From IMG/VR virus record IMGVR_UViG_3300033146_001838, positions 1 through 27,579 of that record: a stretch of DNA of 27,579 nucleotides; one strand, given 5' to 3'. A model generated the notes under the pieces. The model was given only the letters and a program-made list of their open reading frames with translations. It searched no databases and was not told the origin of the DNA. A program made the translations under genes and the position numbers. Source of the DNA: a virus. This document shows, in pieces, positions 1,046 through 24,176 of this stretch (its first letter is position 1; every line of letters begins with the position of its first letter).

Positions 1046-2047
1046 ATGCCCATCAAAGGAATGACCAACAGAGACCTTGCTTTTCCAACTATCGGACAGA
1101 TTAGAAAGGGGAGCAAAAAGACAAGCAACGCGCCCGGCCGCGACCTGACGTATTTTCGGGTTGTGTTTGACGAACTTGAAAAAGAATCCGAGCGCGTGTT
1201 TAACCTGTATTACGATAATGAACCGCGCAGTATTCGGATTATTCTTCCGTTCAACGATATTGATAGAGTTTGGGACGCGTGGCTTGAAGCCTATACTGCC
1301 GGAAGGATGGTAGCCCGTTCAGACGGTGAATTTGTTCAATTTGCCACGGACGGAATAACAGGTGAGATCATCGTCAAGAATGGCGTTAGTATTGCTACGG
1401 GGCAACCCGTTCCTCATCCCGCCGATAATATCGCCGGATATGATTATAAAGACCGACCTATTGAATACAAGCACCACGGTCGATTGAAGGTGATTATTCC
1501 AGAACTTGAACGTGCCGCTTATTTGACCGTCATCACTACTGGTAAATGGGACGTTGCAAACATGGACGCTGAACTGCGCGGGTTTCATGCCTTGAATAAC
1601 GGTCAGATTGCAGGTATCCCCCTTATTATTCTCCGGAAGCCGGAAGAGAAACCGGTTACTATCAATGGGAAGAGGGTTCGTAAGATTTTTTGGAACATCC
1701 ACATTGAAGCCGCTTCTGATTGGATGCGCGGTAAATTCAACGATCTGATGCGTCAAGCCCTTCCCGACGTTGTTGATGGCGAAGCACTTGCTCTACCCGA
1801 ACACGCAACTTTGGTTGATGAAGCCGAGAATATCGGTGGTGTCGTAGTAGAAACATCTGATTTACCGCCAGTTGTTGCTGAAAATGTTAAGCAAGAATTT
1901 GGCAAAGATATGAACGCAAATGATTTTTGGGATGTTGTCTATAATGAATTAAATCTTACGCCGAGTGCTGGAAAGAAGGCGTTGCAAGATAGTGGTGGTT
2001 GCTTTGATGTTGCTCTTGAAACGCTAAAAAAACAGGTGAAGAAATGA
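1046..2047 (+). CDS. Putative phage recombination/DNA-binding protein (Gp3-like RDF type)
   Basis: This 333-residue protein opens with MPIKGMTNRDLAFPTIGQIRKG. That opening resembles the Gp3-like family often annotated as recombination directionality factor or 'hydrolase or metal-binding protein'. A large alpha/beta core spans residues 1-235. The last ~45 residues (FWDVVYNEL...ALETLKKQ) look like a small three-helix UBA-type domain. AAGGAG sits 6 nt before the start, and the gene overlaps the next one by ATGA. Position early in the genome, before the replication genes, fits a single-strand-binding or recombination accessory role. The family match rests on recall, so the function is tentative. 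Confidence 0.6.
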   Translation: MPIKGMTNRDLAFPTIGQIRKGSKKTSNAPGRDLTYFRVVFDELEKESERVFNLYYDNEPRSIRIILPFNDIDRVWDAWLEAYTAGRMVARSDGEFVQFATDGITGEIIVKNGVSIATGQPVPHPADNIAGYDYKDRPIEYKHHGRLKVIIPELERAAYLTVITTGKWDVANMDAELRGFHALNNGQIAGIPLIILRKPEEKPVTINGKRVRKIFWNIHIEAASDWMRGKFNDLMRQALPDVVDGEALALPEHATLVDEAENIGGVVVETSDLPPVVAENVKQEFGKDMNANDFWDVVYNELNLTPSAGKKALQDSGGCFDVALETLKKQVKK

Positions 2048-2535
2048 CTCATAGGAACATTGTCAATATCGATAAGCACGAGTATCTCAATCCGTTCAAT
2101 CTCGGTGCGGATGGTGACGATATTCGAGCATTCAGTTCAGGCGAAGAAGGTTTTGTGTCATCTGCTTTGATGATGTTACTCACAACTGCGAACGATCTTT
2201 CCGATGGAGATTTCTTGTCTGATTCGAGTGTTGTTGGCTCTTGGGCTGGTGATCGTATTGTTATCACTAGCGAAGAGATGGAACCCAATAAGTTTATGGG
2301 CGATCTTGATGTTCGTGATATTGACGCGGTAAAAGCACTTGGAACATTCGATATGGTGAATTTGCATATCTTTGCAGATCAGATGTTTGCTGAAATATCT
2401 GTGCCGGTTATTACTCAGTTAATAAAAGATGACTGTGTACGCAGAAAAATGGTAAGGTTAGCATCAAAATATCATAGCGAGTTTACAGTTGCACTTGAGC
2501 AAGCTGTTTACAAAGATCTCTATGTGGTAAAATAG
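2044..2535 (+). CDS. Hypothetical protein translationally coupled to the Gp3-like gene
   Basis: This 163-residue acidic protein has no recognised family. It starts at the ATGA overlap with the preceding stop codon, so it is probably translated together with the Gp3-like protein and may act with it. No signal peptide, membrane segment or cysteine motif is seen. The C-terminal third is predicted helical. A strong hairpin follows 34 nt after its stop codon. Confidence 0.7.
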   Translation: MTHRNIVNIDKHEYLNPFNLGADGDDIRAFSSGEEGFVSSALMMLLTTANDLSDGDFLSDSSVVGSWAGDRIVITSEEMEPNKFMGDLDVRDIDAVKALGTFDMVNLHIFADQMFAEISVPVITQLIKDDCVRRKMVRLASKYHSEFTVALEQAVYKDLYVVK

Positions 2536-2568
2536 TTTCTGTCACCCAGTTTTCCCTCCCCACTTCCT

Positions 2569-2606
2569 CCCCCGTAGGTTGACCGCTCCGAAATAACCTA
2601 CGGGGG
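2569..2606. terminator. Strong 12-bp hairpin after the first operon
   Basis: CCCCCGTAGGTT (2569-2580) pairs perfectly with AACCTACGGGGG (2595-2606) around a 14-nt loop. It lies just after the stop of the preceding gene. No clean T-run follows (the next tract is A-rich on this strand), so it may act as a 3'-end stabiliser, as a terminator for the opposite strand, or as a weak terminator here. Confidence 0.6.
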
Positions 2607-2845
2607 TTGGGTTGGAGATTTAAAAAAAATTATATTTGTGAGTTCCTCAGCCGTAGAGAACGTGGTTACTCGAAAAACAGGCAGATGGTTCGATGAGGAT
2701 AGAACGGACTGCCCGCGCTATTATTTTGGATTTATTTAGGTGGGTAAAAATAGAATTAGGTATCATTGTCTCCGAGGGGGTAGTCATAGATACATTTTTT
2801 GAATGTAGAAAATCGGCGGGTGGTTCTGCCGATTTTCGTTTTAAG
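2607..2845. other. Non-coding gap with a second terminator
   Basis: I see no convincing gene here. A 72-codon open frame (2693-2911) runs through the terminator at 2809-2843 and into repeat module B and has no ribosome site, so I do not accept it. The only clear element is the hairpin AAAATCGGC/GCCGATTTT near the right end. Confidence 0.5.
2809..2843 (+). terminator. Terminator upstream of module B
   Basis: AAAATCGGC (2809-2817) pairs perfectly with GCCGATTTT (2828-2836), followed by CGTTTTAA. It sits directly before module B, which carries its own terminator, so two terminators in tandem precede the promoter. Confidence 0.75.
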
Positions 2846-3063
2846 TATCTCTTTGTTCCAAAATTACCCCCGTCATGGTGTCAAAAGCAGTCACAAGTTG
2901 GTTCCCAGTGAAACCTATACAATCTATCCTATCCCCTAAGAAAGTTCCTCACAGGCTTTCTCAGGGGATTTTGTTTTAATCCTGAAACTCCCTCTTGACA
3001 CTATATATACCATGTGCTAGAATAGGGTACATTCAAAAACAAACCAAGTTATAGGAGACGACA
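2846..3063 (+). promoter_or_regulatory. Terminator-promoter module B
   Basis: This is a near-identical copy of module A. The tandem site is GTCAAAAG (2880-2887) plus GTCACAAG (2890-2897). The terminator stem is 2933-2944/2956-2967 with a T-rich tail to 2977. The promoter has TTGACA at 2995-3000, a 17-bp spacer and TAGAAT at 3018-3023, with the same 5' leader and AGGAGACGACA before the ATG at 3064. One half of the tandem site carries a C-to-A change relative to copy A. Confidence 0.88.
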
Positions 3064-3330
3064 ATGGATAAAGAAATTCAAGAAGAAATCAAGAAAGAAT
3101 ATGACGAGAAATTAGAAATGTGCGCTACTATGAAGCGATTTGGTGGGTCATTTGTTCAAAGTTTAGCCGAGTGTTTTATCAGAGCGGATCAAGAAAATCT
3201 AAAAAAACTCTATGTTGCGTTCCCTAATGAGGTTGCGCTTTATAGTAATTGGCATTGCCAAAATGATAAATTTCATGATGCCCCCGCCAAAATTCGACAC
3301 GATAGAATAGTTGATAAACGTTTCGGATAA
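3064..3330 (+). CDS. Small phage protein of unknown function
   Basis: This 88-residue charged protein is expressed from module B. The N-terminal 20 residues form an EK-rich helix. The middle (FGGSFVQSLAECF.RADQENLKKLYVAFP) resembles small phage proteins I recall from Gram-positive phages, without an assigned role. The start is fixed by the conserved leader. It is followed by a large structured inverted-repeat element rather than a close neighbour. Confidence 0.75.
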   Translation: MDKEIQEEIKKEYDEKLEMCATMKRFGGSFVQSLAECFIRADQENLKKLYVAFPNEVALYSNWHCQNDKFHDAPAKIRHDRIVDKRFG

Positions 3331-3344
3331 TAGAATCATTGCTC

Positions 3345-3438
3345 CCTTCCACTTGACCGCGTACCGTATAGGGTTAGGCTACCCTGCCGGCGGCGAAGAA
3401 AGAGAATCCCTAGGTCTCTTACGCGGTCAAGTGGAAGG
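3345..3438. repeat. 94-nt Y-shaped inverted-repeat element
   Basis: A perfect 19-bp inverted repeat (CCTTCCACTTGACCGCGTA at 3345-3363; complement at 3420-3438) encloses 56 nt that can fold into two further hairpins (AGGGT/ACCCT at 3370-3385 and AGAGA/TCTCT at 3401-3419). A three-way junction results. TTTTCTT follows the right arm at 3442. It fills nearly the whole gap between two genes. It could be a structured RNA, a terminator or a miniature mobile element. Confidence 0.8.
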
Positions 3439-3458
3439 AAGTTTTCTTGGAGAATAAA

Positions 3459-3632
3459 ATGGATAAGTACAAGAAGTTGCGCTTACTTGTTGAAGCGCAA
3501 ATTGAAGAAGCAAAATCTAATATCAAGTTTGAAAATGAGGAGCGCGTTACAGATAAAGCGTATCTCAGAGAACAGCATATTATTGTTTTCTATTTTGAGA
3601 AGGTGCTTCGGGAGTTTGATGATAAAGCATAA
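3459..3632 (+). CDS. Small charged helical protein
   Basis: This 57-residue, EK-rich protein is probably all helical. ATG 3459 is preferred over an upstream in-frame TTG because GGAG lies 6 nt before it. It starts 20 nt after the Y-shaped element, so that structure would lie in its 5' leader. It overlaps the next gene by 14 nt. Function unknown. Confidence 0.65.
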   Translation: MDKYKKLRLLVEAQIEEAKSNIKFENEERVTDKAYLREQHIIVFYFEKVLREFDDKA

Positions 3633-3870
3633 AAAAAGAAATCTGGAAAGAGAAAAGCGTGAGCGGTCAAGATATAAAAAGTGGATACCGCTTTTGGACC
3701 TCCCCCCGATAGATAGTGTAGTCTTTTTGGATAAAAGACCATTTAAGATTGTTGGAATTAATACCACGCAAACCAAGATTTTTGTTGAGAATCCTTTTGA
3801 TGTTTTCTTTGAGGTTAAGCGTGAAGTTGTCCAGTGTGCTTTTGATGATATTCAAAGCATCGTTGGGTAA
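3619..3870 (+). CDS. Hypothetical basic protein
   Basis: This 83-residue protein has a strongly basic N-terminus (KHKKRNLEREKRERSRYKK) followed by a beta-rich segment (PLLDLPPIDSVVFLDKRPFKIVGINTTQTKIFVENP). ATG 3619 with GGGAG 4 nt upstream is chosen; the open frame extends further upstream only as a shadow of the preceding gene. The basic tail suggests nucleic-acid contact. Family not recognised. Confidence 0.62.
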   Translation: MIKHKKRNLEREKRERSRYKKWIPLLDLPPIDSVVFLDKRPFKIVGINTTQTKIFVENPFDVFFEVKREVVQCAFDDIQSIVG

Positions 3871-3888
3871 GAAGGAAAGAGGTGAGTT

Positions 3889-4791
3889 ATGTACACAGTT
3901 TTTATTGACGAGATGGTAAAGAAGATTTCGTCAAACCACGGTGGTTTATTAAGCCGCCAAGAACTAACAGATATTCTTGTAGAATACTGGCAGGATTACG
4001 CTGTGCATATTTGGAGCATCCCAGATATTTTCGATGTTGCAAACAGAAACGCGATCCCTACCAGTATTGAAATGGCTCGCGAGAGTCTTAGAAATATGGA
4101 GAGTTATGTTGATTCTGAGTACGGAATGACTTGGGACTCGGTTGAGCTCGCTGTTGAAAAGTGGCACAGTGACGTTTCGTTTGATGAGATGTCAGATGAA
4201 AAACTAGCCGAGTATAAAGGTCGGTTTGCGTTCAAATATATTGATGGTGAAGAAGAGCGTACTCTTTTTCGAGATATAGTCGGTGGTGTTTTTTCTGATG
4301 GTTTGTTATCTGCTAAACGAGCCGCTCAAGTTGTTGCTAACACAAGAATGATAGATATTGATATTTATTCTGTTGATGAAGAAAGCAGTTCTATCATAGC
4401 GGATGATTTTTCTGGTCATACAAAATTTTGCTTAACAATCGAACCAGAAAAAGTCCCGTGCATTGATTTCCACTATATGTATCGTGATGGTGCAAATTGG
4501 AAAAACCATGGCTCCATATCTTTTGCGAATCCGACCGGTGAAGATAGCGATTTTCTTTATGAAAAGTTTTTGGCTTTATTGGAAGATGGTTATTTTGTAG
4601 CCGAGCAAGTAAGCCTACTTACGTTATTCAATGATAACTATGACGCTAATTATGATCATGGTTTTCACGAAATCCATCACCTAAAAGAGCTTGTAACAAA
4701 ACCAGAAGATGATCGTGAAATTCTCGAATTTCTCGCAGAGTTTGAAGAAGCATCTAAAAGCGGTTGGACTCCTGTTCGCACAGGCGAATAG
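3889..4791 (+). CDS. Hypothetical 300-residue acidic protein
   Basis: This is a long soluble acidic protein without a recognised family. AAGGAAAGAGGTG precedes the ATG. No cysteine cluster, Walker motif, signal peptide or membrane segment is visible. Asp/Glu are abundant, especially in the C-terminal half (NDNYDANYDHGFHEIHHL, then EDDREILEFLAEFEE). It ends directly before a new promoter, so it closes the module B transcription unit. Confidence 0.75.
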   Translation: MYTVFIDEMVKKISSNHGGLLSRQELTDILVEYWQDYAVHIWSIPDIFDVANRNAIPTSIEMARESLRNMESYVDSEYGMTWDSVELAVEKWHSDVSFDEMSDEKLAEYKGRFAFKYIDGEEERTLFRDIVGGVFSDGLLSAKRAAQVVANTRMIDIDIYSVDEESSSIIADDFSGHTKFCLTIEPEKVPCIDFHYMYRDGANWKNHGSISFANPTGEDSDFLYEKFLALLEDGYFVAEQVSLLTLFNDNYDANYDHGFHEIHHLKELVTKPEDDREILEFLAEFEEASKSGWTPVRTGE

Positions 4792-4793
4792 TT

Positions 4794-4833
4794 TTGACTG
4801 TAGAAAAGTAATGTGCTATCATATTGTATATAC
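4794..4833 (+). promoter_or_regulatory. Promoter of the ParB-like operon
   Basis: TTGACT (4794-4799), a 17-bp spacer, TGTGC before the -10, and TATCAT (4817-4822) make a good extended -10 sigma70-type promoter. The palindrome GTATATAC lies just downstream at 4826-4833, where a repressor could block initiation. The Shine-Dalgarno AAGGAG of the next gene follows. Confidence 0.75.
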
Positions 4834-4849
4834 CCACAAGGAGTAAGAC

Positions 4850-5569
4850 ATGACTGATTATGCAAATGCAAGTATTAAGAGGGGGTGCGGCAAGCGCAAA
4901 GAGGGAGGTGTTTATGCGGAATCCGGTAATAGCAAAAAGGGATCCCCGCTTGAGTCCTTTGTTTTATGTCCCCCTATTCCCTTTGATCCAGATGAGTTTG
5001 GTATCTCGCCGATAGGTGTTCAGTTACGCCAGTTTCAAGGTGAGACTTGGCACATCGTGGATTGGGTTGGCTCGAAGTATTATCCGAATGTGACCGATTT
5101 TCTCGAAGAAGTACGCCGGTTTGGGCTTTCTCGCCGGCTACCTCGCTCATTGGATTTCAGTAAGTTGACTAATGAAAGTCGGCTTTATCTTGTCCATAGT
5201 CAGGCGTGGATAGAAAAACCCTCACCGTATCTTAGCAATCGTCTAGGCGGTAATAGAGTTGGCATGGTGTGGGACAGTTGCCCCCGAGGAATAGAACATG
5301 CTGATGGTGAAATTTGCTCAGGTCTTTGGTGGGAGGATGTAGTTGGAATGAAAACGAGCGCAACGCGCGTTGGCAATCGTGTTATGCCTGCGTTTCAGTA
5401 TTCAGCGGCAAAACCCCCGAACAGTTCGGATGGTGAACATGGGGTAGCCTTCTTTGCCAAGTTCCCTATTCATCGTCTGGCACTTATTCGTGCGGAAGAT
5501 GGATCACATAACGATACAGCTAAGTTGGTTTCAAAGTCGGAAATCCGCTTGGATATTTTAGACGAGTAA
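4850..5569 (+). CDS. Hypothetical protein, first gene of the ParB-like operon
   Basis: This is a 239-residue protein of unknown function. The opening (IKRGCGKRKEGGVYAE) and the core segment YYPNVTDFLEEVRRFGLSRR are distinctive, and I recall similar unnamed proteins in other phages. The remainder is tryptophan- and proline-rich and globular. AAGGAG lies 7 nt before the ATG, and it sits 13 nt ahead of the ParB-like gene, so the two are co-transcribed. No catalytic signature identified. Confidence 0.72.
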   Translation: MTDYANASIKRGCGKRKEGGVYAESGNSKKGSPLESFVLCPPIPFDPDEFGISPIGVQLRQFQGETWHIVDWVGSKYYPNVTDFLEEVRRFGLSRRLPRSLDFSKLTNESRLYLVHSQAWIEKPSPYLSNRLGGNRVGMVWDSCPRGIEHADGEICSGLWWEDVVGMKTSATRVGNRVMPAFQYSAAKPPNSSDGEHGVAFFAKFPIHRLALIRAEDGSHNDTAKLVSKSEIRLDILDE

Positions 5570-5582
5570 AAGGAGTAGTAGC

Positions 5583-6389
5583 ATGACAAAACAAAAAAGT
5601 TTATTTGATGATCTCAAGGCTGAGGAGGTTGAAAAGGATTTGATTTATGTTGATCCTACGTATATCGAGGTTTCTGATCTAATCCAGCCCACCGATGAGT
5701 TTATTAAAAGCGTGCGAGAACATGGCGTTCTACAGCCTGTTCTTTTACGTAAACTCCCAGATAATGCTCTTGTTGAAGGTAGGTACCGAGTAATTGCCGG
5801 TCGGCGGCGTGTGACAGCGGCTAAGATTGTTGGTCTTGAAAAAGTCCCTGCTTTAATCCATAACACACAATCGGTTATTTATGATGCGGCGATGTCGCTG
5901 GAGGCACAAGCCTTACACAGTGACAACCCGATTGCGGATTTTCGGGCTATTGTTCTCCTGATTGATGAGGGGTACACGAAAGAATCAATCACCTCCGCAC
6001 TCGGGGTTTCTACGGACAGGATTGATAAATTGCTCCGGCTTGGAATGGTGAGCAACTCAATTCTTGATGCTATTGAAGATGAAACGGTTGCTCTTGGTAC
6101 TGCCTTGAGCATGGCTAAGTTAGGTGATGTTTACCGAGAGCGACTCGAAGAGAAATTTAAGAGAGAAGGCAAATTGACCGGCAAAGATGTGCGACAAGTC
6201 AAGCAAGTGAAAGCTAAGAAGGCTTCGGGCGCTGTATTCGAGGCAATTGCAGATCAAGAGAAGAATACCTATCAGTCCCCATTAGAAAAGATTGAAGAAC
6301 TTTTGTGTTCGTCTGCCAGCCTTGGCAATAGCGAATATGAAAAAGGCTGGAATGAAGCACTTGAAAAAGTATTAGAAGTTCTCTCATAG
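5583..6389 (+). CDS. ParB/Spo0J-like nuclease-fold DNA-binding protein
   Basis: This 268-residue protein has a ParB N-terminal domain: IEVSDLIQPTDEFIKSVREHG around residues 28-48 and the phosphate-binding box GRYRVIAGRRR at 66-76. A helix-turn-helix follows (YTKESITSALGVSTDRIDKL, 131-150), then a lysine-rich linker and an acidic C-terminal helix. In plasmids and phages such proteins act in partition, as CTP-dependent DNA clamps, or as nicking nucleases. No parA partner is next to it, so a regulatory or replication role is as likely as segregation. AAGGAG 9 nt before the ATG. Confidence 0.9.
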   Translation: MTKQKSLFDDLKAEEVEKDLIYVDPTYIEVSDLIQPTDEFIKSVREHGVLQPVLLRKLPDNALVEGRYRVIAGRRRVTAAKIVGLEKVPALIHNTQSVIYDAAMSLEAQALHSDNPIADFRAIVLLIDEGYTKESITSALGVSTDRIDKLLRLGMVSNSILDAIEDETVALGTALSMAKLGDVYRERLEEKFKREGKLTGKDVRQVKQVKAKKASGAVFEAIADQEKNTYQSPLEKIEELLCSSASLGNSEYEKGWNEALEKVLEVLS

Positions 6390-6399
6390 GAGATATGCC

Positions 6400-6873
6400 G
6401 TGAAGATTATGTATAGGTCTGATTTGTTTGGGATTCACTTTATAGAAGTAGTCTCAGAGAATGAAGAAAGTATTACAGTCAAAGAAGGTACTGGAACAAT
6501 GGTTTTCAAAAAACCAGTTTCGTTTTTATTTAATGATATTGAAGATGCGCGCTTGCATCGTTTAAATATGCTTCAATCTGCTGAGATTGATGCTATAAAA
6601 CGGGTACGTAAAATTCAGGGTTTGCGAAATGAGTTTCAAAAGGAATTAGATCAACCGATTGTTTTTAAGAGATCGTTTCATGCGAAGGATTTTCCAAAAG
6701 GCTCGCGTGAACGTGCGAAGCTGAATTTAACTCCGATTACAAGCGAATATATGAGTTCCTATAAATGGACTGTTCGCTCAATAGATGCTAGTCGTAGGTT
6801 TGTTTATAAATCCTTCCGCACGGAAGAAGAGGCTACAACCTACGCCACAAAGGATATTGAATATGTCAAATAA
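6400..6873 (+). CDS. Hypothetical protein with GTG start
   Basis: This 157-residue protein is of unknown function. TAGGAG ends 8 nt before GTG 6400, which is better placed than the internal ATG at 6409. The N-terminal third is beta-rich, the middle a basic coiled helix (residues ~50-85), and the C-terminus resembles a small 'DASRRFVYKSFRTEEEATTYA' module. It overlaps the following gene by 11 nt. Confidence 0.65.
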   Translation: MKIMYRSDLFGIHFIEVVSENEESITVKEGTGTMVFKKPVSFLFNDIEDARLHRLNMLQSAEIDAIKRVRKIQGLRNEFQKELDQPIVFKRSFHAKDFPKGSRERAKLNLTPITSEYMSSYKWTVRSIDASRRFVYKSFRTEEEATTYATKDIEYVK

Positions 6874-7183
6874 CGCTCCCTTATCTTTCGATGAGTTGAT
6901 TGATAAAGAAGGCTACGATATTGCTAGTTCTCATAAGCCCGTAAACGCTAAAATCAAAGGTACAACCATTCGTAAGAATCCAGTTGATATACTAAAAGTG
7001 GTTTCTCTCTACGAGGCTCTTGTAAACGTTGGTGCAAATAAAAAGCGCATTTTGCTCGCCTTTATGAAAACCTATCAAATCTCTACCCGCGAGGCGCGTG
7101 AGTTGTTCAATCAAGTGTTTGTTTATAAAAAGAAAAAAAAGAAACATGCTTTGCAAAATGAAGAAAAGAGAGCCAAACAATGA
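6863..7183 (+). CDS. Small lysine-rich hypothetical protein
   Basis: This 106-residue basic protein ends in a YKKKKKKH tail. Helices around residues 40-85 (ILKVVSLYEALVNVGANKKRILLAFMKTYQISTREARELFN) look like a compact helical domain that could bind nucleic acid. The start at ATG 6863 overlaps the previous gene. The 3' end carries an A8 run (slippage-prone) and overlaps the next gene by ATGA. Confidence 0.62.
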   Translation: MSNNAPLSFDELIDKEGYDIASSHKPVNAKIKGTTIRKNPVDILKVVSLYEALVNVGANKKRILLAFMKTYQISTREARELFNQVFVYKKKKKKHALQNEEKRAKQ

Positions 7184-7860
7184 AAATAGTTTCTGACAAT
7201 CCTCTTGTTTTATTGTCTGGTTTTCGAATTAGTGCAGACAAAGTTAATCAGCTTTTAAATTTTTCAGAACGTGAAGGGAAAATGAGAAGAGTGTCTACAG
7301 AACAAATGTGCAATCGCCTTGTTGATGCTATAGATAAGTTGAGTCCTATGCTTTTGGATAATATGGACTATCTCATTGTTAAATCTACAGTGTATGAAAA
7401 TCACGCAAAGAATCTAGGTATAGCGGTCGAGGACCTTACGCAAGGTAACAAAAAAGATGCTTTTCTCGAGGCTGTTTTAGAGTTTGGAAAGGAAAATATA
7501 GTAATGTCAGAGAAAATGGATATGTCAGATATTGCGGCTTTGATGCTAGAGTATGAAAGAATGCAGAAAAAAGCCGATGCTCTTCGTCAAGACATTGAGA
7601 GGGCAGTTTTGGCCCACGGCAAGACGATTGTAGTTGGAAATGTTCGTGCCTCCTACTTATCGCCTAAGAAATTCTACGATCATCGTTCTGCTGTTTTGGA
7701 TAAATTTCCAGATGCTTCGTTCAATAAAATTTCTGGTCCTGTTATCTCAAAATATACGTCTGAACCAAAAGTGTCGTGGGCAAAAGTTACAAAGTCTCTT
7801 GGCATAAATGTTGTTGGTAAGGTAATTTTTCCTGCCTCCTGTAAAGTAAAGATACTGTGA
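7180..7860 (+). CDS. Hypothetical coiled-coil phage protein
   Basis: This 226-residue protein starts at an ATGA overlap. A predicted coiled coil (LEYERMQKKADALRQDIERAVLA, ~residues 128-150) precedes a small beta segment, KTIVVGNVRASYLSPKKFYDH. That arrangement recalls phage nuclease-inhibitor or Gp157-type accessory proteins, but I cannot assign it. It is the last gene of the ParB-like operon, just ahead of a new promoter. Confidence 0.65.
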   Translation: MKIVSDNPLVLLSGFRISADKVNQLLNFSEREGKMRRVSTEQMCNRLVDAIDKLSPMLLDNMDYLIVKSTVYENHAKNLGIAVEDLTQGNKKDAFLEAVLEFGKENIVMSEKMDMSDIAALMLEYERMQKKADALRQDIERAVLAHGKTIVVGNVRASYLSPKKFYDHRSAVLDKFPDASFNKISGPVISKYTSEPKVSWAKVTKSLGINVVGKVIFPASCKVKIL

Positions 7861-7874
7861 TATACTGTATATAC
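7858..7874 (+). promoter_or_regulatory. Candidate extended -10 promoter with GTATATAC
   Basis: TG-A-TATACT (7858-7866) is an extended -10 with no good -35, in the same form as the site at 24499-24507. The palindrome GTATATAC (7867-7874) abuts it. It would drive the short gene at 7898. Confidence 0.5.
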
Positions 7875-7897
7875 TATTATGTAAAGGAAGGTTATTT

Positions 7898-8125
7898 ATG
7901 GCACGTTATCCCTTATTTCCGATTAGGCTCCGACCAGATGATCGCAGTGCAATGGAAGAAGTAAAAGCGCGGTTGGGTTTGCTAACTCTTGCAGACTCAA
8001 TTCGTTTCGCTGTTAGGTTTTTGAAGATGCAACTTAAAACTCTTTCTATGAAAGAAATCAAGAAATCGGTTCTCGATTACGAAGAAGAAAACCCGACTTG
8101 TTGGAAAATTACCACGGGTGATTAA
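7898..8125 (+). CDS. Small putative DNA-binding protein
   Basis: This 75-residue protein has a short strand (RYPLFPIRLRPDD) followed by two helices (MEEVKARLGLLTLADSIRFAVRFLKMQL), an arrangement compatible with a ribbon-helix-helix repressor. AAGGAAGG lies 8 nt upstream. It has its own promoter with a nearby palindrome and its own strong terminator, as expected for a self-regulated repressor, although this is inference. Confidence 0.65.
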   Translation: MARYPLFPIRLRPDDRSAMEEVKARLGLLTLADSIRFAVRFLKMQLKTLSMKEIKKSVLDYEEENPTCWKITTGD

Positions 8126-8126
8126 A

Positions 8127-8160
8127 AAACATAACCCGCACTGGATGGCGGGTTATGTTT
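8127..8160 (+). terminator. Strong terminator
   Basis: AAACATAACCCGC (8127-8139) and GCGGGTTATGTTT (8148-8160) form a perfect 13-bp stem with an 8-nt loop. The right arm ends in GTTT, then CTT. It separates the small regulator from the replication module. Confidence 0.85.
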
Positions 8161-8215
8161 CTTCCGTGAAGGAAAGAGGTAAACAGATTGTATCATAATT
8201 TTGTGAAGGAAGATT

Positions 8216-8938
8216 ATGGCGAGGAAAAGAATGATTGATCCTAGTTTTTGGGAAGATCCAGATATTGGTTCCTTGTCTGTTCAAGAACGGTTGCTTTTTA
8301 TTGGATTGTTCTCAAATGCAGACGATGAAGGTCGAGGAGAGGCAGATCCGCGCTATCTCCGCAAGGCTATATTCGGTTTTGACAATGATGTCTCTTTTGA
8401 TAATGTCGGTGAAATGTTGGAAAATATCGTCAAGGGGGTTAGAGGTGTTACCGTTTATGAGAAAGATGATAGAAAGTATTATGCTCTTCTGCATTGGAAG
8501 AGATACCAGAAAGTTTCTCATCCTACGGTATCTTCTATTCCCGCACCCGATGGCGTTTACGCTAATGGTGAAGGCAATAATGTCGGGGAAATCTTTCGCT
8601 ATTGGGAGAAAGCAAATGGTTCGATAACCGGTGCAGTTGCTCAAGAAATTGGCGCAATGATTGATGAGTGGGACGAGTATGTTGCCGGATTGGATGAAGT
8701 TAATTCAGATAAGAAAATCTCTGGTGTTGATGCTACGCTGGAAGCCCTGAAAATTGGCGTGCGTGCTAAGACACGTCCGCATATAAATTATATCTGGGGG
8801 ATATTAAAGAATTGGATGACTAACGGGTATAAAGCTAATGCTCCAAAATCTGGTGAAACAAAACTGGAGGTCAGTGAGGGTTTATCTATTGAAGATATAG
8901 CCAAAGCCAAAGCCAAAAAGAAAGGTGGTAAGAAATGA
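8216..8938 (+). CDS. DnaD-like phage replication organiser
   Basis: This 240-residue protein has an N-terminal replisome-organiser domain (ARKRMIDPSFWEDPDIGSLSVQERLLFIGLFSNADDEGRG), typical of phage initiators. It is followed by a DnaD/DnaB_2 domain: GEIFRYWEKANGSITGAVAQEI at ~124-145 and GVRAKTRPHINYIWGILKNW at ~181-200. Such proteins bind the phage origin and recruit the helicase loader. It overlaps the DnaC-like gene by ATGA, the usual initiator-loader pair. The 3' end has three AAAGCC repeats encoding an AK-rich tail. Confidence 0.88.
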   Translation: MARKRMIDPSFWEDPDIGSLSVQERLLFIGLFSNADDEGRGEADPRYLRKAIFGFDNDVSFDNVGEMLENIVKGVRGVTVYEKDDRKYYALLHWKRYQKVSHPTVSSIPAPDGVYANGEGNNVGEIFRYWEKANGSITGAVAQEIGAMIDEWDEYVAGLDEVNSDKKISGVDATLEALKIGVRAKTRPHINYIWGILKNWMTNGYKANAPKSGETKLEVSEGLSIEDIAKAKAKKKGGKK

Positions 8939-10259: not shown

Positions 10260-10270
10260 TCCTATTACTC

Positions 10271-10496
10271 CAAAATCACCCCCGTCACGGTGTCACAAGC
10301 AGTCACAAGTTGACCACCGGCAAAACCTATACAATCTACCCTATCCCCTGAGAAAGCCCCTTACAGGCTTTTTCAGGGGATTTTATTTTAATCTCCGGTA
10401 CCTGAAAATTCCTCAAAATTCCCCCTTGACACTGTATATACCATGTGCTAGAATGGGGTACATTCAAAAACAAACCAAGTTACGAGGAGGCATAGC
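10271..10496 (+). promoter_or_regulatory. Terminator-promoter module C
   Basis: This is a diverged copy of modules A and B. The tandem GTCACAAG sites are at 10292-10299 and 10302-10309, with AACCTATACAATCTACCCT following. The terminator stem is CCCCTGAGAAAG (10345-10356)/CTTTTTCAGGGG (10368-10379) with tail ATTTTATTTTA. The promoter has TTGACA 10426-10431, a 17-bp spacer and TAGAAT 10449-10454. GTATATAC (10434-10441) lies between -35 and -10. The leader ends in GAGGAGG ahead of radC. Confidence 0.88.
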
Positions 10497-19721: not shown

Positions 19722-19742
19722 TCAAATAACGCTCAAAATACA

Positions 19743-19806
19743 GTCGTCATCGTGTCACAAGTAGTCACAACGATTATACGAGCGTAACCTATACAATCTA
19801 CCCTAT
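19743..19806. repeat. Truncated module element E (GTCACAAG tandem)
   Basis: Right after the minor head gene is a copy of only the upstream part of the repeat modules: CGTCATCGTGTCACAAG, tandem sites GTCACAAG (19754-19761) and GTCACAAC (19764-19771), and ACCTATACAATCTACCCTAT (19787-19806). The terminator and promoter halves are absent; an open frame begins instead. Confidence 0.85.
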
Positions 19807-20870: not shown

Positions 20871-20964
20871 ATCTCCGATCCCTGAAACTCCCTCTTGACA
20901 CTATATATACCATGTGCTAGAATAGGGTACATTCAAAAACAAACCAAGTTACGAGGAGACAGTA
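20865..20964 (+). promoter_or_regulatory. Promoter half-module D
   Basis: The promoter and leader part is as in modules A and B: TTGACA 20895-20900, 17-bp spacer, TAGAAT 20918-20923, then AGGGTACATTCAAAAACAAA and GAGGAG before the ATG at 20965. The GTCACAAG tandem is not here; a lone copy of it (element E) sits about 1.1 kb upstream. Confidence 0.85.
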
Positions 20965-21195: not shown

Positions 21196-21335
21196 TCATT
21201 GCAAAAATGTTTTTTGGAAAGTGGATTATCTTAATAACCAGTTGATGCAGAAAATGCACCAACTGGAAAGAATGCCGCAATATATTGAAAATTGGATATT
21301 ATGCGGCTTAAAAGTAGCTTAAAAACGAGTTAGGT
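21196..21335. other. Left junction of cassette array: hairpins and R'-like GTTAGGT
   Basis: The gap holds two hairpins, CCAGTTG...CAACTGG (about 21239-21268) and GCCGCA...TGCGGC (about 21275-21308), then GTTAGGT (21329-21335). GTTAGGT continues as GTCTAAATT, like the cassette boundary at 21599. It fits an R' box where a first cassette begins. A matching R'' and symmetrical stem could not be found, so it may be a degraded attC or a secondary insertion site. Confidence 0.45.
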
Positions 21336-21599
21336 GTCTAAATTGGAGAAGAAATTATGAGTAAAGAAGAAACTTTCAACCAGTGGCTAAAAACGGAAAT
21401 GCCAAATTTGCGTTCTGCAATGATGACAGAAAATGAAATGTTTGCATCGGCATTTAATGCAGGCTATCGGGCGCAACACCTAACCCCTGTTGTAGCTGAT
21501 TCGGCTAATGCTCCGCGTTTACATCGGTCAGAAGTAACTGAAATTTTCGAATGTCCAACGTGCGGTTCTATACTCACGCCGAACAGCTAAACTAATTCG
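21330..21599 (+). mobile_element. Integron-type gene cassette 1
   Basis: Bounded by R' boxes GTTAGGT (21329) and GTTAGGC (21599), with cleavage expected after each G. It holds one short gene (21357-21590) followed by attC at 21478-21605. The two boundaries share the sequence GTTAGGYRTCTAAATT, as expected from a common site family. Confidence 0.6.
21357..21590 (+). CDS. Cassette 1 protein, small, with CPTCG
   Basis: This 77-residue protein of unknown function has a helical N-terminus (FNQWLKTEMPNLRSAMMTENEMFASAFNAGYRAQ) and a single CPTCG near the C-terminus. TTGGAG lies 9 nt before the ATG. Its last third is encoded inside the attC site, so the cysteine tail may be partly a by-product of the recombination site. 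Confidence 0.6.
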   Translation: MSKEETFNQWLKTEMPNLRSAMMTENEMFASAFNAGYRAQHLTPVVADSANAPRLHRSEVTEIFECPTCGSILTPNS

Positions 21600-21605
21600 T
21601 TAGGC
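21478..21605 (+). other. attC site 2 (128 bp)
   Basis: R'' ACCTAAC (21478-21484) and R' GTTAGGC (21599-21605) are complementary at six bases. Between them AGCTG-A-TTCGGC (21494-21505) pairs with GCCGAACAGCT (21578-21588), leaving one extrahelical A in the left arm. Spacers are 9 and 10 nt, as in attC at 22083. The long variable loop lies within the coding region of cassette 1. Confidence 0.75.
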
Positions 21606-22170
21606 ATCTAAATTTAGTTCGAAGGAGAAAATATGTACGATAGCACAAAAGATACAAGCGACCACAAGAAAGCGGTTAAACACTTTATGTCCGTCGCAAT
21701 TCTCGAGCTGACACAAAGAGCAATCGTCCACGATGCAAGCAAATTAGAGTCACCAGAAAAAGAAATGTTTGATAAATACACTCCGTTGCTAAAAGACACA
21801 ACTTACGGCAGCGATGAGTATAAAAAATATCTCTCTGAAATGGGCGTTGCGCTGAAACATCACTACGAAAACAATACTCACCATCCAGAACATTTTGAAA
21901 ATGGTATTGCTGGCATGTCGCTATTAGATTTACTAGAAATGTTTTGCGATTGGCAAGCAGCATCTTTGCGCCACGCAGACGGCGACATTGTAGAGAGCAT
22001 AGAAATAAACCGCAAAAGATTCGGCATGTCTGACCAACTCCATCGTATCTTTTTGAATACATTAAAAGAGTTGTGGGGCAATGCCTAACATTAAATGCAC
22101 TTGACCTATGGCGGGCGCAGGCGTTTTTAGTCCGTAAATTATAACCGCCATAGGCAAGTGATTATCACCG
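21600..22170 (+). mobile_element. Integron-type gene cassette 2
   Basis: Runs from TTAGGC after the G at 21599 to the G at 22170. It holds the DUF5662 gene and the attC site 22083-22176. The gene's stop codon overlaps the R'' box (GCCTAAC), a compact layout usual in cassettes. Confidence 0.75.
21633..22088 (+). CDS. DUF5662-like protein
   Basis: This 151-residue protein has the DUF5662 signature: IVHDASKLESPEKEMFDKYTP, ALKHHYENNTHHPEHFENGI and MSLLDLLEMFCDWQAASLRH. The conserved His/Asp residues suggest an HD-like metal-dependent fold. The family is found in phages and integron cassettes; its substrate is not known to me. GAAGGAG sits 6 nt before the ATG. The reading frame ends in GGCAATGCCTAA, merging into attC. 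Confidence 0.82.
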   Translation: MYDSTKDTSDHKKAVKHFMSVAILELTQRAIVHDASKLESPEKEMFDKYTPLLKDTTYGSDEYKKYLSEMGVALKHHYENNTHHPEHFENGIAGMSLLDLLEMFCDWQAASLRHADGDIVESIEINRKRFGMSDQLHRIFLNTLKELWGNA

Positions 22171-22176
22171 TTAGGC
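22083..22176 (+). other. attC site 3 (94 bp)
   Basis: R'' GCCTAAC (22083-22089) is perfectly complementary to R' GTTAGGC (22170-22176). The stem is CACTTG-A-CCTATGGCGG with CCGCCATAGGCAAGTG, 16 pairs with one extrahelical A in the left arm, and an asymmetric ~30-nt terminal loop. These are the hallmarks of an integron attC site folded as a single-stranded hairpin. Spacers between R boxes and stem are 8-9 nt. Confidence 0.92.
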
Positions 22177-22202
22177 ATCTTCTTTCTCGGACGAGTTCTG
22201 AA

Positions 22203-22278
22203 ATTGGTCTACCAATCCCTTGACTTTGTGCGTACAATCTGCTATAATGTAGGTAGATGAGTGAGACAAACTCACTCA
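22203..22278 (+). promoter_or_regulatory. Cassette 3 promoter with operator-like site and 5' hairpin
   Basis: TTGACT (22220-22225), 17-bp spacer, TG-C then TATAAT (22243-22248): a near-consensus extended -10 promoter. The inverted repeat ATTGGT-CT-ACCAAT (22203-22216) abuts the -35, a possible operator. The transcript would start with the hairpin TGAGTGAG-ACAAA-CTCACTCA (22258-22278), which could protect its 5' end. CAGGAG follows before ATG 22298. Confidence 0.8.
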
Positions 22279-22297
22279 CGAAATCAGGAGAAACAAA

Positions 22298-22624
22298 ATG
22301 AACGCAAAAATCGAAGCCAGAATAAACGAACTAGAAAAAATGACAGAACTCCCCGCAGACGAAAACGCAAAAGTTTACGATGGCATAAAACACGCGGTCA
22401 CGGTAATTGAAGACGCGCTGCTAAAAATGAAATCCGCAGGTGTTCCCGCATCAAAAGCAATGTTCGAAGCACCTGAATTTTTTCGCTCAATCGTAAGAAA
22501 GCAATGGGGAGGCGACACCGTAAGTTTTGTAAACGAGAAAGGTCACGGACAAGTTACTCTTAATGCTACCTTTGGCGATTTACCAAGTATGGTACGCGAT
22601 TTAGCCGAAGAAACATTGAGCTAA
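22298..22624 (+). CDS. Cassette 3 first gene, hypothetical
   Basis: This 108-residue helical protein (ARINELEKMTELPADENAKVYDGIKHAVTVIEDALLKMK...FFRSIVRKQWGGDTVSFVNEKGHG) has no recognised family. It has its own strong promoter and ribosome site (CAGGAG). Pairing with a small downstream gene 4 nt later invites comparison with toxin-antitoxin cassettes, but no known family was identified, so this stays a hypothesis. Confidence 0.72.
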   Translation: MNAKIEARINELEKMTELPADENAKVYDGIKHAVTVIEDALLKMKSAGVPASKAMFEAPEFFRSIVRKQWGGDTVSFVNEKGHGQVTLNATFGDLPSMVRDLAEETLS

Positions 22625-22628
22625 TAAA

Positions 22629-22859
22629 ATGACTAAACCATATTGCACCCAAAACGATGGAGACTGCTCTAGTTGCAGTCTCTCATCTTACGGCAGAGAT
22701 TGCCATAATGTTAGGATTATCACATCGCACAAGGGGGGGCGCACAGAGCGCATCTCGCTAAGAGCCACGCTAGAGTGTAAAGCAGAATTCGAGAAAATTG
22801 GAATTAGCGCAGGTGATTTGTTTGAGTGGGCAGTTGCTAATTATCTGGGCAATGCCTAA
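22629..22859 (+). CDS. Cassette 3 second gene, cysteine-rich
   Basis: This 76-residue protein has an N-terminal cysteine cluster (CTQNDGDCSSCSLSSYGRDC, residues ~5-24). The C-terminal part is RISLRATLECKAEFEKIGISAGDLFEWAVANYL. It ends LGNA-stop where TAA lies in the R'' box, exactly like the cassette 2 gene, so the site has shaped the C-terminus. No strong ribosome site, so coupling to the gene 4 nt upstream is likely. Confidence 0.7.
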   Translation: MTKPYCTQNDGDCSSCSLSSYGRDCHNVRIITSHKGGRTERISLRATLECKAEFEKIGISAGDLFEWAVANYLGNA

Positions 22860-22872
22860 CCCCGCGTTAAGC
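22854..22872 (+). other. Truncated attC half-site at right end of array
   Basis: GCCTAAC (22854-22860), 5 nt, then GTTAAGC (22866-22872) matches the left half of an attC (RYYYAAC-N5-GTTRRRY). No right half follows; phage-type coding sequence begins at 22893. The array therefore ends in a broken site. Confidence 0.6.
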
Positions 22873-22892: not shown

Positions 22893-23135
22893 ATGTCTTA
22901 TTCGATTAAGAGTTTACAAAGTTATCAAGAGACTTACATGCTTGGTGCTATAAGGAGTTACCATGAATCAATAAAAGATAAAAACTCGGTGATATTGATA
23001 GTTCTCTCTGCTATAGATGGAGGAAATCTTGGTAAAGCTAAGATGCTCCTCTCTCAACTTGACGATATTCCATCAAGTTTTGTAATTAGTCAGCATAGAG
23101 ATTATTTGAAAGGTGTAATTAGTCGTAGACTTTGA
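22893..23135 (+). CDS. Hypothetical protein after the cassette array
   Basis: This 80-residue helical protein (SYSIKSLQSYQETYMLGAIRSYHESIK...VILIVLSAIDGGNLGKAKMLLSQLDD) has no recognised family. ATG 22893 follows GAGAAAG at very short spacing; a TTG at 22878 is an alternative. It opens a block of four genes with overlapping or near-touching ends. Its natural upstream region was probably replaced when the array landed. Confidence 0.58.
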   Translation: MSYSIKSLQSYQETYMLGAIRSYHESIKDKNSVILIVLSAIDGGNLGKAKMLLSQLDDIPSSFVISQHRDYLKGVISRRL

Positions 23136-23566
23136 TAAACTTCTTGCGGTTATATACCGAGAATGGTATACTTGTATTTGCTCATCCTCCTTTTGAGAGC
23201 GCAGTACAGATAGTGGCTAGGGATATGGTGAAGTCCCTAGCCACTATCGTACAGGAAAGAGGTTTCCCCGTGAAAAACGATAGAGAAAGAAGAGAAGAGA
23301 TCATTCCTGATTTATTCGGGTATCTCTCTGCTTGGATTGAAATAAATTCCAAATGGGAATTTGTACTGAAACGCAATACTTACAATGCGGCTATGTCCCT
23401 AGAATTTCGCAAAGACCGCCGGAGAACAAAATGGTTTGAGCATGAATGTTTGGACCAAGTTGACAATATAGTTTCTCTTGCTTGCCGTAAGTTTCGGATG
23501 GTTGAAAAACGTTGGATTATTGACGGTATTATCACCTACACGTTGGTTCCAAAAAGACTGCCATGA
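23132..23566 (+). CDS. Hypothetical protein with hairpin in its 5' region
   Basis: This 144-residue frame opens at a TTG that overlaps the previous stop (TTGA). A GTG at 23270 with AGGAAAGAGG 9 nt upstream is a better-looking start and would give 98 residues. The upstream 46 codons still read like protein (VFAHPPFESAVQIVARDMVKSLATIVQERGF). A perfect 15-bp inverted repeat lies between the two starts. The C-terminal half is basic with FRKDRRRTKWFEHECLDQVDNIV. Function unknown. Confidence 0.58.
   Translation: MINFLRLYTENGILVFAHPPFESAVQIVARDMVKSLATIVQERGFPVKNDRERREEIIPDLFGYLSAWIEINSKWEFVLKRNTYNAAMSLEFRKDRRRTKWFEHECLDQVDNIVSLACRKFRMVEKRWIIDGIITYTLVPKRLP
23204..23252. repeat. 15-bp perfect inverted repeat, 10-nt loop, extended to 19 bp
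   Basis: GATAGTGGCTAGGGA (23209-23223) pairs perfectly with TCCCTAGCCACTATC (23234-23248); outside it GTAC (23204-23207) pairs with GTAC (23249-23252), leaving one bulged A. No T-run follows. It lies just before the GTG and ribosome site at 23253-23272, so it may be an RNA control element or operator. Confidence 0.8.
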
Positions 23567-24043: not shown

Positions 24044-24176
24044 ACATCTCATTGAACGCTCACGGAGTACTCACTGAGTACTCTCTCTTAATTAAGTTAA
24101 GTTAAGTTTAATTAAGATTAGTTAAGAACTACATGGGCGAAGTTGTTTTGTTTTGTAAGAAAGTTCCTCACAGGCT
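24044..24176. repeat. 112-bp direct repeat, copy 2, with fused module fragment
   Basis: 24044-24155 is identical to 1-112. It is then joined directly to TAAGAAAGTTCCTCACAGGCT, which at the window start lies at 204-224. So bases 113-203 of the copy-1 arrangement are missing here, and the promoter half is gone too. This looks like a deletion derivative of the whole leader. Confidence 0.9.

What the first reader, a model, noticed from the sequence alone, without database searches (positions are those of the whole stretch)
3345..3438. 94-nt three-way-junction element with 19-bp perfect arms
It nearly fills an intergenic gap and folds into a Y. AGGGT can pair with local ACCCT or with the distant CCCTA, so two exclusive folds exist. 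The loop contains GTTAGGC and the arm shares CACTTGACC with the attC at 22083, but no R boxes lie at its ends. It may be a regulatory RNA, a hairpin mobile element or a terminator (TTTTCTT follows).
Basis: partly seen in the sequence, partly recalled or inferred. Interest (0 to 1): 0.6.

Follow-up and report, generated by a model that had tools for sequence, protein, structure and literature searches.

The report
Intercistronic RNA hairpin in phage operon
A phage carries one unusually long, perfectly matched hairpin between the first two genes of an early operon, most likely an ordinary RNA punctuation mark that separates how much of each gene is made; no copies, relatives or special Y-shaped fold were found.

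Summary
The hairpin is real. Its 19-bp perfect arms (3345-3363/3420-3438; 22 positions with one mismatch over 3342-3441) form the longest inverted repeat in the window. The longest in any of 100 shuffles was 15 bp, and fold z-scores are about -5.5 to -6. It fills most of the 128 nt between an 88-aa and a 57-aa gene of an early phage operon and ends 7 nt before the Shine-Dalgarno.

The more interesting claims fail. The interior folds no better than its shuffles (48% do as well), so the three-way junction is not evidence of selection. The 'two exclusive folds' are 98.5% versus 0.02%. CACTTGACC also occurs in the terminase gene, and attC boxes are absent from the ends. No credible Rfam match. No copy or homologue was found, so covariation cannot be tested.

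Best explanation (inferred): an intercistronic mRNA hairpin acting as processing site or decay barrier, possibly also a leaky terminator (TTTTCTT abuts the stem). It lies in an accessory operon and is GC-rich for this genome (57% v 41%), so a recently acquired palindromic insert remains possible.

The parts
3345..3363 (+). 5' arm, CCTTCCACTTGACCGCGTA
   Evidence: perfect complement of 3420-3438; no other site in the window with up to 3 mismatches
3420..3438 (+). 3' arm, TACGCGGTCAAGTGGAAGG
3342..3441 (+). extended stem-loop: 22 positions per arm with one mismatch (C3344/A3439)
   Evidence: (I6)
3364..3419 (+). 56-nt interior; predicted to fold into two small hairpins, no better than shuffled sequence
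   Evidence: -15.7 kcal/mol, 47.9% of 2000 shuffles as good
3442..3448 (+). TTTTCTT directly after the stem; a possible weak terminator U-tract
   Evidence: read from sequence
3449..3452 (+). GGAG, Shine-Dalgarno-like, 7 nt after the stem; predicted mostly unpaired (mean 0.65 over 3448-3453)
3064..3330 (+). upstream 88-aa gene of the operon (weak match to phrog_15317, unknown function)
3459..3632 (+). downstream 57-aa gene, no relatives found
2995..3023 (+). sigma-70-like early promoter TTGACA-17-TAGAAT (11 of 12), inside a 219-nt segment 96% identical to 117-335
   Evidence: (D2)

Best explanation
The element is an intercistronic stem-loop of a polycistronic early phage mRNA. The transcript starts at the 2995-3023 promoter. 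When RNA polymerase has passed the 3' arm, the transcript zips into a stem of 19 perfect pairs (22 positions with one mismatch) between the stop codon of the 88-aa gene and the Shine-Dalgarno of the 57-aa gene. The stem then serves as RNA punctuation: it blocks 3'-5' decay into the upstream cistron and/or is cut as a long duplex (RNase III type) or shields the 5' end of the downstream part after a cut, so that the two parts of the operon decay, and are expressed, differently. The stem, its position and the free downstream Shine-Dalgarno are shown or predicted here; transcription, cleavage and the effect on expression are inferred.
For: Stem far beyond chance. Placed wholly between two co-directional genes downstream of an 11/12 promoter that recurs in four near-identical copies in this genome. 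No consensus promoter lies between the stem and the downstream start, the nearest weak one (9 of 12) being at 3311-3339, so downstream genes appear to depend on read-through. In a 530-nt transcript fold the arms pair with probability 0.97 while the start codon is 98% unpaired and the SD stretch 65% unpaired. Step-wise folding of the growing transcript shows the arms zipping up only once the 3' arm is made. Intercistronic hairpins with this role are established: PMC5927463 (section 8 read) describes papBA, where a hairpin protects the downstream part after RNase E cleavage, and its reference list cites the puf intercistronic stem-loop (passage seen).
Against: No transcript data and no homologue, so no covariation. 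In the 23 related viral loci scanned no comparable long-armed hairpin was found between early genes, so it is not a conserved part of this phage group. A perfect 19-bp stem is longer than decay control needs. The same place and shape would also suit a leaky terminator. The papBA-like protective structures detected in PMC5927463 lay inside the upstream coding region, unlike here.
Confidence: 0.45

Rival explanations
1. A leaky intrinsic terminator or attenuator that lets part of the transcripts through to the downstream genes.
For: TTTTCTT directly follows the extended stem. The zipping stem completes just as the T-run is transcribed. The genome uses terminator-like hairpins elsewhere, e.g. 198-236 followed by TTTGTTTT and 2808-2837 followed by GTTTTAAG.
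Against: The interior is 56 nt, whereas the other hairpins of this genome listed have loops of 4-23 nt. The T-run is interrupted and short. There is no strong promoter after it for the four-gene remainder of the operon, and a terminator-like hairpin already stands at the operon end, 4772-4791.
Confidence: 0.27
2. A palindromic (MITE- or REP-like) insert, or a piece acquired with the accessory operon from a more GC-rich replicon, with no present role.
For: 57% GC in a 41% GC genome; only 0.15% of 94-nt stretches are as GC-rich, and the interior is as GC-rich as the arms. The whole region between the RDF gene (1046-2047) and the replication gene (8216) looks inserted: in L132 and L133 the relatives of these two genes are 185 and 420 bp apart, against about 6.2 kb here. 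Perfect arms fit a recent origin.
Against: Single copy in the window. No copy in phages or plasmids, viral contigs, genome contigs, or 400 Chloroflexota genomes by BLAST and by covariance model, nor in 147 and 150 genomes of two families. No target-site duplication; the best flanking match is 5 nt, not in register.
Confidence: 0.17
3. A structured regulatory RNA that switches between two folds of a three-way junction.
For: The predicted minimum-energy fold is a Y, and TAGGG can in principle pair with CCCTA.
Against: The interior folds no better than shuffles; local pairing 98.5%, distant 0.02%, with the distant fold 5.4 kcal/mol weaker. No Rfam match at gathering scores; the only matches at E up to 10 were plant and viral microRNA precursors far below their cut-offs.
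Confidence: 0.05
4. A degenerate integron attC site related to the one at 22083.
For: GTTAGGC at 3373 and CACTTGACC shared with the attC at 22098.
Against: No R box at either end, GTTAGGC has no complementary partner in the element, no unpaired extrahelical base in the perfect stem, and CACTTGACC is also in the terminase gene.
Confidence: 0.02
5. A fold-back assembly or amplification artefact of the metagenome.
For: Only one record of this phage is available, and the arms are perfect.
Against: The arms stop at 22 positions; fold-back chimaeras usually duplicate far longer stretches (recalled). The interior is unrelated sequence.
Confidence: 0.04

Closest known systems
Intercistronic stem-loops for differential mRNA decay (papBA, puf; PMC5927463 section 8 read, puf seen only as a cited title)
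   Same: Stable hairpin between or near two cistrons of one operon; downstream translation start left free.
   Different: Perfect 19-bp stem here; the papBA-like protective structures detected in that paper lay inside the upstream coding region; no transcript data here.
RNase III processing hairpins of T7 early mRNA (recalled; two searches gave no paper that I read on it)
   Same: Intercistronic hairpins of about two helical turns in an early polycistronic phage mRNA, upstream of the next gene's ribosome site.
   Different: Known from memory to recur at several gene junctions; here a single copy, without known sequence or structure determinants.
Intrinsic terminator
   Same: Stem followed at once by a T-rich tract (TTTTCTT).
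   Different: 56-nt interior, interrupted T-tract, inside an operon.
Integron attC site
   Same: Long inverted repeat; contains one GTTAGGC.
   Different: Lacks R boxes at the ends, extrahelical bases and a partner box.
Palindromic repeats found by the arm pattern (e.g. repeated TTGTAGGCGCGGGCTTGACCGCGC hairpins of Betaproteobacteria bin28, L021, L028, L059, L081; rickettsial hairpins L055, L070)
   Same: Long perfect arms that contain CTTGACCGCG.
   Different: Arms differ outside the 10-nt core and interiors are unrelated; multi-copy there, single here.

Membership tests
Intercistronic mRNA stability/processing hairpin | stable stem-loop between two genes of one transcript | tested here: met
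   for the stem and its place; co-transcription itself inferred from promoter and gene order
Intercistronic mRNA stability/processing hairpin | mRNA ends or differential half-life at the stem | not testable with these tools
   no RNA data
Intrinsic terminator | GC-rich stem of short loop followed by a run of T | tested here: inconclusive
   scan (loops of 3-8 only) does not list it; by eye TTTTCTT follows the extended stem but the interior is 56 nt
Integron attC | R'' and R' core boxes (RYYYAAC / GTTRRRY) at the two ends | tested here: not met
   ends are CCTTCC/GGAAGG; GCCTAAC absent from the element
Integron attC | extrahelical bases in the folded strand | tested here: not met
   arms pair without any bulge
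MITE/REP-like palindromic mobile element | more than one copy | tested here: not met
MITE/REP-like palindromic mobile element | target-site duplication or empty site | tested here: inconclusive
   no duplication; no relative with the empty site was found
Known structured RNA family (Rfam 15) | score at or above the family's gathering cut-off | tested here: not met
Functional three-way-junction RNA | interior helices beyond chance or covarying | tested here: not met
   (47.9% of 2000 shuffles as stable); covariation untestable, no homologues

The most novel reading that the evidence does not exclude
A new class of phage-borne palindromic cassette: a GC-rich perfect hairpin brought in with an accessory early operon and kept as its RNA punctuation, so that newly captured genes get their own processing site when they are joined to a duplicated early promoter.
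Probability: 0.06. Interest if true: 0.5.

Novelty: new member of a known kind. Interest (0 to 1): 0.2.

Why it matters
If the hairpin is RNA punctuation, it shows how a newly captured early operon of a phage can be given unequal expression by a single stem. It would matter more only if the stem recurred as a movable processing cassette, for which there is no evidence now.

Tried and rejected
Rfam: no gathering-level match; at E up to 10 only microRNA precursor models far below their cut-offs, rejected. Copies: strict arm pattern in viral contigs, 0; looser 10-nt arm cores in genome contigs, 67 stretches, and 9-nt cores in viral contigs, 43 stretches. Reading all 110 of them showed chance matches in genes or unrelated repeat hairpins; CCACTTGACCGCG occurs in 4 of 138 loci then held, three of them pieces of the window and one (L019) inside a stretch without the second arm. 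BLAST in 400 Chloroflexota genomes gave 6 genomes at E<=0.01 with 19-29-nt pieces, about what 400 searches give by chance, none in a like hairpin. A covariance model made of the element alone gave 1 of 400 (G239), a stretch inside a response-regulator-like gene (258-aa ORF on the other strand), rejected, and 0 of 147 and 0 of 150 in two families.

Relatives: no locus by the 300-aa neighbour, the DnaC-like protein or the early-promoter motif. 14 loci by terminase and 9 by the RDF-like protein, none with the hairpin. Three prophage-like stretches of Chloroflexota genomes had no inverted repeat with arms of 14 or more.

A link between the element and the attC at 22083 was rejected: 23 nine-mers are shared between the element (both strands) and the rest of the window, against a shuffle mean of 14.1, sd 5.0, with 5 of 100 shuffles reaching 23. 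This is a slight, not convincing, excess.

Full report
What is there. The window is a linear virus record of 27,579 bases with terminase, portal, RtcB ligase, ParB-like and replication genes. Between an 88-aa gene (3064-3330) and a 57-aa gene (3459-3632) lie 128 bases, most of them filled by an inverted repeat: 19 perfect base pairs (3345-3363 with 3420-3438), or 22 positions with one mismatch (3342-3441). It is the longest inverted repeat with a loop up to 100 nt in the window; 100 shuffled windows gave 9-15 bp at most. It folds far better than shuffles as DNA and as RNA of either strand.

What is not there. The 56-nt interior, which makes the 'Y', folds exactly as well as shuffled sequence (-15.7 against -15.8 kcal/mol, 47.9% of 2000 shuffles as good), and the proposed alternative pairing has a probability of 0.0002 against 0.985 for the local one. 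The three-way junction and the switch are therefore not supported; the unusual thing is the outer stem alone. The shared nine-mer CACTTGACC also stands in the terminase gene, and the attC-defining boxes are missing from the ends.

Setting. The upstream promoter (TTGACA-17-TAGAAT, 2995-3023) lies in a 219-nt segment 96% identical to 117-335, and its core recurs at 10416 and 20885. Two of the relatives found through the RDF-like protein keep the relative of the replication gene close behind it (L132: RDF to 4166, Rep from 4351; L133: 6729 and 7149), whereas here about 6.2 kb separate the two (2047 to 8216). The element thus lies in what looks like an accessory region headed by a duplicated early promoter (inference from two of the nine viral RDF loci; the others showed no such neighbour match at E<=1e-3 or only a partial one). 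The element has 57% GC in a 41% genome, with arms and interior alike; 0.15% of 94-nt stretches are as rich.

Search for copies and relatives. None was found in the window, phage and plasmid records, viral contigs, one genome for each of 84,980 species by an arm pattern, 400 Chloroflexota genomes by BLAST and by covariance model, 297 further family searches (147 and 150 genomes), or the loci of 23 viral relatives. These searches need near-identical arms or a fair match to a model made of one sequence, so diverged copies could be missed, and metagenome contigs could not be scanned. Records very near the window may be left out of the collections, as the tools say.

How it most likely works. The stem lies between stop codon and the next Shine-Dalgarno, with the start codon predicted free; it zips up only when the 3' arm has been made. 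This is the layout of intercistronic hairpins that separate decay rates of neighbouring genes, as described for papBA in PMC5927463 (section 8 read), and it resembles RNase III processing sites of T7 early mRNA (recalled). A leaky terminator is the closest rival, because TTTTCTT follows the stem directly. Shown: the stem, its place, its predicted dominance. Inferred: transcription, processing and effect.

Verdict. A real but single hairpin with an ordinary likely role. No homologues, so its function cannot be tested by covariation. Interest is low.

Noticed in passing
21330-22860: Integron-like gene cassettes inside the phage: attC-like site 22083-22176 (GCCTAAC ... GTTAGGC, inner arms 22105-22114/22145-22154), another about 21478-21606, and a truncated one from 22854; the cassette at 21633-22088 encodes a DUF5662 protein.
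   Followed up: partly
1-112 and 24044-24155: Exact 112-bp direct repeat; the second copy continues into a piece of the early-promoter region (24156-24176 = 204-224), which points to a rearrangement or assembly junction.
   Followed up: no
117-335, 2850-3068, 10269-10492, 19731-19806, 20885-20961: A terminator-plus-early-promoter block repeated up to 96% identical ahead of several operons.
   Followed up: partly
2048-8215: About 6 kb between the RDF-like and replication genes that relatives L132 and L133 lack at this place; looks like an accessory region.
   Followed up: partly
23209-23248: A second long perfect hairpin, 15-bp arms and 10-nt loop, inside or at the start of ORF 23132-23566.
   Followed up: no
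1046-2047: Recombination-directionality-factor-like protein (Pfam PF18897), with relatives at 39-42% identity in Chloroflexota genomes; hints at the host group.
   Followed up: partly
L021, L028, L048, L051, L054, L056, L059, L081: Repeated palindromes with arms like TTGTAGGCGCGGGCTTGACCGCGC in one Betaproteobacteria MAG, with unrelated interiors: an interspersed palindromic repeat family.
   Followed up: no
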